From the NCBI GenBank assembly GCA_937877715.1, contig CALEHW010000066.1:1-64000 (forward strand): a stretch of 64,000 bases of DNA. The letters are read 5' to 3'. The notes below the pieces were generated by a model. It was not told the origin of the DNA. It saw nothing but the letters and a program-made list of their open reading frames with translations, and did not search any database. Position 1 is the stretch's first letter, and every line of letters begins with the position of its first letter. Source of the stretch: an uncultured Methylophaga sp. GTDB taxonomy: Bacteria; Pseudomonadota; Gammaproteobacteria; GCF-002020875. The position numbers and the translations under genes are program-made. Of the stretch, positions 62,760 to 64,000 are shown piece after piece.

Positions 62760-62952
62760 TGACTGAAGTCATTTGACTATATTATTCAGAGTGATCTCAT
62801 CTAAGGCTACTTTCTTGGTAGCTTGTAACAATATGTAACAAAACTCCTTGCCAATCAACTTGATATCACCGCCTGTGGGTATATACTGTCGGATGATACG
62901 GTATCGTTGGTTCTGTTGTATTGGGAGCGTATAAATGGCTGTGCCTACATGA

Positions 62953-63574
62953 ACAAACGTTAACTCATTGACTGATGCGAATGAGAGTATGCCATATGTG
63001 ATTTCATGGGTAGATCTTGTCTCTGCAGCAGATGAAGCGGATCCTGATGGTGACGAGATCAGCTTCATTATTGACTGTTAACAATGGTACGTTAACAAAA
63101 AATGGACTGACAGTTACCGAGGGTGTAACCACCCTTTCGGTGATGGAGTCATTAGTATGGACTCCATCGTCGGGAGATACTGGATCAGTTGAGGCATTTA
63201 CTGTTCGCGCAACAGATGGGGCTCAGAGTTCAGACACAGCAATTCCTGTAGTCATTGATGTCAATTCAGTTGATGGATCAGAACTGTTAATTGATGTTAC
63301 CCAGGCTGTTATTGATGATTTAGCAGATTTGTATGAATCGTCAGGCGCATCAGGAAGTGACGGTTCACTATCAGATATGTTTGATACGGTTGTGCCGATT
63401 GAGGCATTAACCTCGGCTAACTATTACTACTATTCCAGCTACTCATCAACTAGTTCTACAATTACTCTCAATTATCCAGATGGGGCCACTGCAACCTACA
63501 TCCCTGATATACAATCATTGCAGAATAACAACAATCAGGGGTGGGGGATATGGCCGTCAGGCTGGACCAGGTAG
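62953..63574 (+). pseudogene. Degraded/frameshifted cadherin- or Ig-like tandem-repeat coding region (one recognisable repeat unit plus linker)
   Basis: Frame 1: TNVNSLTDANESMPYVISWVDLVSAADEADPDGDEISFIIDC*; then frame 2: LLTVNNGTLTKNGLTVTEGVTTLSVMESLVWTPSSGDTGSVEAFTVRATDGAQSSDTAIPVVIDV. Together they make one continuous repeat, split by an indel near 63076. Confidence 0.65.
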
Positions 63575-64000
63575 TTGTCATTATTGATGACTTCAGTTAT
63601 CGCTCTCTTGGGAGTGATAATGTTTATTACTATGATGTTGGTTGCATGGACAGCGTTCGTCTCTATGACTATGTCTACAATGGTTATGGGGAGGTGGATG
63701 ACTTCGAGTATCTGTACCTTGATGAACTTGGCGGGTTCTATCCGATCAACCCAGCTGATTTTACCGAGCCCGAGCAGAGCTACTACACCCTTGAGATGAT
63801 TGAGGAGGGAACCCTCTACGATACTGGCCTGGATCCATCCGGGAACACTATTTACTATAGCGACTACCTGGAATTTACCGGGGATGAGCCAACCTCGGAT
63901 GAGACAGAACTGCATGGTGACTGGATTCTAGACTCCTTTCTTAACCAGCTGGATAACCAGGATACCGACATTATTCTGATCGATGTCGATCAGTGGTCTG
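63550..64000 (+). CDS. Partial >=150-aa protein open at the window edge, possible S8 (subtilisin-like) peptidase domain
   Basis: Manual translation from ATG 63550: MAVRLDQVVVIIDDFSYRSLGSDN...ELHGDWILDSFLNQLDNQDTDIILIDVDQWS with no stop to 64000; not in the supplied ORF track. Confidence 0.6.
   Translation, partial: MAVRLDQVVVIIDDFSYRSLGSDNVYYYDVGCMDSVRLYDYVYNGYGEVDDFEYLYLDELGGFYPINPADFTEPEQSYYTLEMIEEGTLYDTGLDPSGNTIYYSDYLEFTGDEPTSDETELHGDWILDSFLNQLDNQDTDIILIDVDQWS

What the first reader, a model, noticed from the sequence alone, without database searches (positions are those of the whole stretch)
63550..64000. Unlisted open frame running off the window: candidate subtilisin-like (S8) domain fused to or beside Ig-like repeats
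The ORF track omits this frame because it has no stop before 64000. It reads 150 codons from ATG 63550, and is open from 63529. VVVIIDDF resembles the catalytic-Asp strand of S8 peptidases, and ELHGDWILDSFLNQLD..DIILIDVD resembles the His-Gly helix followed by a strand. The roughly 60-residue Tyr/Asp/Glu-rich insert between them is unusual. Combined with upstream repeat domains, this could be a large secreted protease or adhesin, of a type not described in this neighbourhood as far as I know.
Basis: partly seen in the sequence, partly recalled or inferred. Interest (0 to 1): 0.62.

Follow-up and report, generated by a model that had tools for sequence, protein, structure and literature searches.

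The report
Divergent subtilisin-like protease, damaged start
The open frame at the window's end is the start of a divergent subtilisin-like protease that is probably exported by a neighbouring type I secretion system, and its first domain is broken by mutations, so it is an unusual member of a known kind.

Summary
The frame is real. It continues past the window edge without a stop to 66705 (1,054 codons from GTG 63541). Pfam Peptidase_S8 matches residues 217-304 (E 4.8e-4 for the 393-aa domain, just under cut-off; E 4.6e-5, above cut-off, for a core I chose). The Asp (VVVIIDDF) and His (HGDW) motifs are non-canonical; one accepted S8 peptidase (L099) has the same variants (TVVDDF, HGQW). He_PIG, VCBS and dockerin-like domains follow. 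The dockerin-like C-terminus recurs only in the next ORF and in a 4,464-aa protein beside a TolC/LssB/HlyD exporter on another contig; gene order in the closest relative suggests one island. The gene probably began near ATG 62935 with a Big_9 Ig domain, now broken by a TGA and two frameshifts, so as assembled only a version starting near 63541/63550 can be made. No close relative of the S8 domain was found in about 770 sampled genomes or in GTDB r220 contigs. AlphaFold without homologues was uninformative. New member of a known kind; activity untested.

The parts
62860..62887 (+). sigma-70-like promoter (TTGATA-16-TATACT) ahead of the gene's probable original start
   Evidence: consensus match only, 10 of 12; such matches are no more frequent here than in shuffles
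62923..62937 (+). GGGAG ribosome-binding-like site (62923-62927) and ATG 62935, probable original start; TGA follows at codon 6 (62950-62952)
   Evidence: sequence and translation
62935..63574 (+). broken 5' part: Big_9 Ig-like domain and linker, split over two frames (stop at 62950; frame change near 63057-63082; frame change to the S8 frame near 63529-63575)
   Evidence: joined reading is Big_9 E 2.2e-8, the second-frame fragment alone has no hit; codon usage changes frame at about 63060 and 63520
63541..64000 (+). S8 peptidase ORF, in-window part; continues to 66705 on the same contig (1,054 aa in all)
63571..63594 (+). candidate catalytic Asp motif VVVIIDDF (D16 at 63586-63588)
   Evidence: sequence; canonical matrix p 0.11; same variant TVVDDF in S8 peptidase L099
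63592..63894 (+). acidic, Tyr-rich insert between the Asp and His motifs
   Evidence: 17% Tyr, 0% Lys; about 75 residues more than the D-H gap of subtilisin (32 residues, general knowledge)
63913..63924 (+). candidate catalytic His motif HGDW (H125)
   Evidence: aligned with HGTH of canonical S8 domains; HGQW in L099; not found by canonical matrix

Best explanation
The frame encodes the catalytic part of a divergent S8 (subtilisin-like) serine protease. Originally it was a protein of roughly 1,250 residues: Ig domain, S8 domain with an acidic Tyr-rich insert, repeats with He_PIG and VCBS domains, and a dockerin-like C-terminus. It most likely leaves the cell in one step through the TolC/LssB/HlyD type I secretion system of the same island, recognised by its C-terminal module, which that system's giant Ig/VCBS-type protein also carries. 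Outside, it would cleave proteins at or near the cell surface, perhaps the neighbouring giant adhesin or environmental protein. In this assembly the first Ig domain is broken by a stop and two frameshifts, so only a version starting near GTG 63541/ATG 63550 can be made. Shown: the ORF, the S8 match over the Asn-Ser half, the Ser motif, the shared C-terminus, the exporter genes and the broken 5' part. Inferred: the catalytic Asp and His, export, the substrate, and that the shortened protein is made at all.
For: Open frame of 1,054 codons; Peptidase_S8 profile match, savinase as best PDB match, profile of 26 related S8 domains aligns the same half; variant D and H motifs shared with S8 peptidase L099, both together in 5e-5 of shuffles; He_PIG and VCBS; C-terminus 48-57% identical to the giant protein and the next ORF; complete exporter operon with LssB above cut-off; aminotransferase/tatD gene order in G004.
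Against: The Asp and His assignments are not significant by canonical matrices. No fold could be predicted. C66 and C3 are not joined by sequence. The 5' part is broken, and the shortened protein lacks most residues that precede the catalytic Asp in known subtilases. The match of the full S8 domain is just below Pfam's cut-off.
Confidence: 0.6

Rival explanations
1. The gene is a recent pseudogene: the lesions near the 5' end abolish translation from its own start, and the long open frame is merely not yet eroded. Nothing is made.
For: A stop at codon 6 and two frameshifts in the first 640 bases; the internal start would lack the strand and helix ahead of the Asp; no relative keeps the gene, so conservation cannot be tested.
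Against: All three lesions lie in the first 17% of the gene and none in the next 1,054 codons; an AGGGG site stands 8 bases before ATG 63550.
Confidence: 0.3
2. The S8-like domain is a fold without protease activity, kept as a structural or binding part of an adhesin.
For: Asp and His motifs depart strongly from the canonical ones, a very long insert separates them, and the flanking domains are of adhesin type.
Against: Candidate D, H, N and S are all present in the right order, and L099 shows the same D and H variants in a compact S8 peptidase.
Confidence: 0.12
3. The lesions are assembly or sequencing errors, or are bypassed by frameshifting, and an intact protein of about 1,250 residues is made.
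For: The second frame change lies around GGGGTGGGGG (63538-63547), a tract where slips happen; the assembly is fragmented.
Against: Three independent lesions, one a plain TGA in frame and one in a stretch without runs.
Confidence: 0.15

Closest known systems
Peptidase family S8 (Pfam PF00082; savinase/subtilisin)
   Same: Asn motif (ASPNVGQG), FADG and GTSFATP Ser motif aligned over residues 204-304; D, H, N, S order
   Different: DDF instead of D[TS]G, HGDW instead of HGTH, an acidic Tyr-rich insert between D and H, score of the whole domain just below the Pfam cut-off
S8 peptidase of genome G111 (locus L099)
   Same: TVVDDF, HGQW, AAGNDG, GTSFAAP: the same variant motifs
   Different: 318-aa open frame, no long insert and no Ig/VCBS/dockerin-like domains; no significant pairwise BLAST match
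Type I secreted giant Ig/VCBS adhesins with LssB-type exporters (TIGR03375)
   Same: VCBS and Ig-like domains, acidic composition, no sign of an N-terminal signal peptide, C-terminal module shared with a giant protein beside the exporter
   Different: Carries a protease domain; the C-terminal module is dockerin-like rather than an RTX type
Dockerin type I domain (PF00404)
   Same: Two DxNxDxxxNxxDAxxxLR-type segments; the giant protein's copy passes the Pfam cut-off (25.4 against 22.9)
   Different: This protein's copy is below the cut-off (16.4); no cohesin partner was identified; the module is longer and ends in IVANGDVNxSGxFxxxYxV

Membership tests
Peptidase S8 | Profile match to PF00082 | tested here: inconclusive
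   E 4.8e-4 and 20.0 bits for the domain against a cut-off of 21.8; 23.3 bits for a chosen core; E 1.9e-4 in the genome search
Peptidase S8 | Ser motif GTSMAxP | tested here: met
   GTSFATP at 294-300; shuffle p 5e-4
Peptidase S8 | Oxyanion Asn motif | tested here: met
   ASPNVGQG aligned with ASGNSGAG of savinase
Peptidase S8 | Catalytic Asp and His motifs (D[TSD]G, HGTxV) | tested here: inconclusive
   Variant forms DDF and HGDW; not significant by canonical matrices, but both are seen in L099
Peptidase S8 | Subtilisin fold | tested here: inconclusive
   AlphaFold2 single sequence, pLDDT 34
Peptidase S8 | Proteolytic activity | not testable with these tools
   needs an assay
Type I secretion substrate | Exporter genes nearby | tested here: inconclusive
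   Complete TolC/LssB/HlyD operon in the genome; same island inferred from gene order in G004, contigs not joined
Type I secretion substrate | C-terminus shared with a linked substrate | tested here: met
   48-57% identity over about 165 residues; that this module is the export signal was not tested
Dockerin type I | PF00404 above its cut-off in this protein | tested here: not met
   16.4 bits against 22.9; the homologous module of the giant protein passes with 25.4

The most novel reading that the evidence does not exclude
A separate branch of S8 peptidases with DDF/HGxW catalytic motifs and a long acidic Tyr-rich insert, delivered by type I secretion through a dockerin-like C-terminal module found only in this lineage; after losing its N-terminal Ig domain it survives as a shorter, internally started protease.
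Probability: 0.2. Interest if true: 0.5.

Novelty: new member of a known kind. Interest (0 to 1): 0.3.

Why it matters
If active, it would add an orphan, highly divergent subtilase to a type I secreted adhesin island, and point to a dockerin-like module as a C-terminal export or assembly signal shared by a protease and a giant adhesin. It also shows that S8 Asp and His motifs can drift (DDF, HGxW) far enough that a Pfam scan of the whole protein misses the domain.

Tried and rejected
AlphaFold2 of the S8 domain (pLDDT 34) and of the C-terminal module with three sequences (pLDDT 38): uninformative, so no fold search was run. S8 domains of other genomes were not given to the structure tool because its stated rule does not list loci of the genome search. 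Close relatives of the S8 domain were sought in GTDB r220 contigs, viral contigs, plasmids, 369 class genomes and 399 phylum genomes (samples overlap): none. The one weak match (G354, E 0.0075) is a chance hit in a giant protein without S8 motifs. C-terminal module: only this genome; one weak dockerin-type hit on a Rhodothermus plasmid. TIYYSDYLEF, nearer the His, was considered as the Asp strand and set aside because it resembles no S8 Asp motif. Paper searches found nothing on type I secreted subtilases or dockerin-like T1SS C-termini in the held library.

Full report
OBSERVATION. The frame at 63529-64000 is as described: 150 codons from ATG 63550, with GTG 63541 as an earlier start. The window is the first 64 kb of a 68,384-base contig (C66) in a 1.89 Mb, 74-contig genome. 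The frame continues without a stop to 66705, 1,054 codons from GTG 63541. Shuffled sequence almost never gives such a run, and codon usage supports the frame.

THE S8 DOMAIN. Past the window edge the protein reads ...VVQASPNVGQGAYNWGG...STFGTSFATPRVAAE..., with subtilisin-like Asn and Ser motifs. phmmer against the PDB gives savinase at E 0.006 over residues 204-304. Pfam Peptidase_S8 matches residues 217-304: E 1.9e-4 in the genome-wide search, 4.8e-4 and 20.0 bits for the isolated domain (cut-off 21.8), and 4.6e-5 and 23.3 bits for residues 191-320, a sub-region that I chose. The scan of the full 1,054-aa protein did not list S8 at E up to 1. A profile that I built from 26 S8 domains of related genomes aligns the same half. 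This is the only S8 match in the genome.

ASP AND HIS. These are the weak points. Against canonical motif matrices VVVIIDDF is the best Asp candidate but reaches only p 0.11, and HGDW is not picked at all. However, MAFFT puts HGDW on the HGTH of the canonical domains, and one compact, PF00082-positive S8 peptidase (L086/L099, genome G111, 39.9 bits) carries TVVDDF, HGQW, AAGNDG and GTSFAAP, the same departures. The two variant patterns together and in order occur in 5e-5 of shuffles of the region (the patterns were written after seeing both proteins). D16, H125, N236 and S296 keep the S8 order, with 109 residues from D to H. The insert is 17% Tyr with no Lys.

DOMAINS DOWNSTREAM. He_PIG Ig-like domain at 520-606 (E 1.9e-14), VCBS repeat at 823-899 (E 2.1e-8), and a dockerin-like module at about 890-1054 (PF00404 at 16.4 bits, below cut-off). 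The protein is very acidic (179 D+E, 27 K+R) with 2 Cys.

EXPORT. The last 165-170 residues are 48-57% identical to the C-terminus of the next ORF (406 aa, C66:66882-68102) and of a 4,464-aa Ig/VCBS-type protein on contig C3. They were found nowhere else: not in the congeners, not in 368 other class genomes, not in GTDB r220 contigs. The giant protein is preceded by a TolC-family protein, an LssB-type ABC exporter (712 bits, above cut-off) and a HlyD-family adaptor, a complete type I secretion operon. Upstream of that, another giant VCBS protein spans contigs C22 and C3, which overlap by exactly 55 bases.

ONE ISLAND (inferred). In the closest relative, G004 (TatD 91% identical), tatD is followed directly by a convergent aminotransferase. 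In this genome that aminotransferase (84% identical over the part present) sits right after the giant protein on C3, while tatD on C66 is followed by a small gene, the S8 gene and the 406-aa ORF. The simplest reading is one island between tatD and the aminotransferase. The ends of C66 and C22 do not overlap, so this is not proved.

THE BROKEN 5' PART. Upstream of the S8 frame are a sigma-70-like site (62860-62887; not more than chance expectation), a GGGAG site and ATG 62935, which reads MAVPT*TNVNSLTDANESMPYVISW.... Joining this across the frame change near 63057-63082 gives a Big_9 Ig domain (E 2.2e-8), while the second-frame fragment alone hits nothing. Codon usage changes frame at about 63060 and again at about 63520. 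So the original gene probably ran from 62935 to 66705 and has a stop and two frameshifts in its first 640 bases and none after. The giant protein next to the exporter likewise begins directly with an Ig-like repeat, which fits this start. Either the gene is a fresh pseudogene, or the S8 part is now made from GTG 63541/ATG 63550. The placing of the lesions mildly favours the second, but the short form lacks most residues that precede the catalytic Asp in known subtilases (general knowledge).

MECHANISM. Most likely an exported serine protease, delivered in one step by the island's exporter and working at the cell surface or in the surroundings. Shown: ORF, Asn-Ser half of S8, shared C-terminus, exporter genes. 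Inferred: the Asp and His assignment, export, substrate, present expression.

VERDICT. The protein is a divergent member of known kinds (S8 peptidases; type I secreted multi-domain proteins). Its unusual points are the variant motifs, the insert, the lineage-specific C-terminus and the damaged N-terminal part.

Noticed in passing
L026:1-6827 and L008:1621-15015 (contig C3:1-20514) with L009 (contig C22): A type I secretion island: giant VCBS protein split over two contigs, TolC, LssB-type exporter, HlyD, and a 4,464-aa Ig/VCBS-type protein with the dockerin-like C-terminus.
   Followed up: partly
L002:11883-13103 (C66:66882-68102): A 406-aa ORF after the S8 gene: an N-terminal 250 residues without any Pfam match, then the same dockerin-like C-terminus; G+C drops to about 35-38%.
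   Followed up: partly
L009:964-6273 (contig C22): The VCBS giant holds a near-identical stretch (FQINSAQVILNDFDPNTDSEIHRIVDL...) of more than 150 residues twice.
   Followed up: no
L002:13350-13385 and L009:1-30: The right end of C66 and the left end of C22 carry similar sequence in opposite orientation (ATCAGGCGGCGTATCTGGT against ACCAGAAGGCCGCCTGACT); perhaps a repeat at which the assembly broke.
   Followed up: no
window:62559-62759: Small 66-aa gene (MDETNNKQKVNIDGTEYDLEQL...) between tatD and the S8 gene; not found next to tatD in the closest relative G004.
   Followed up: partly
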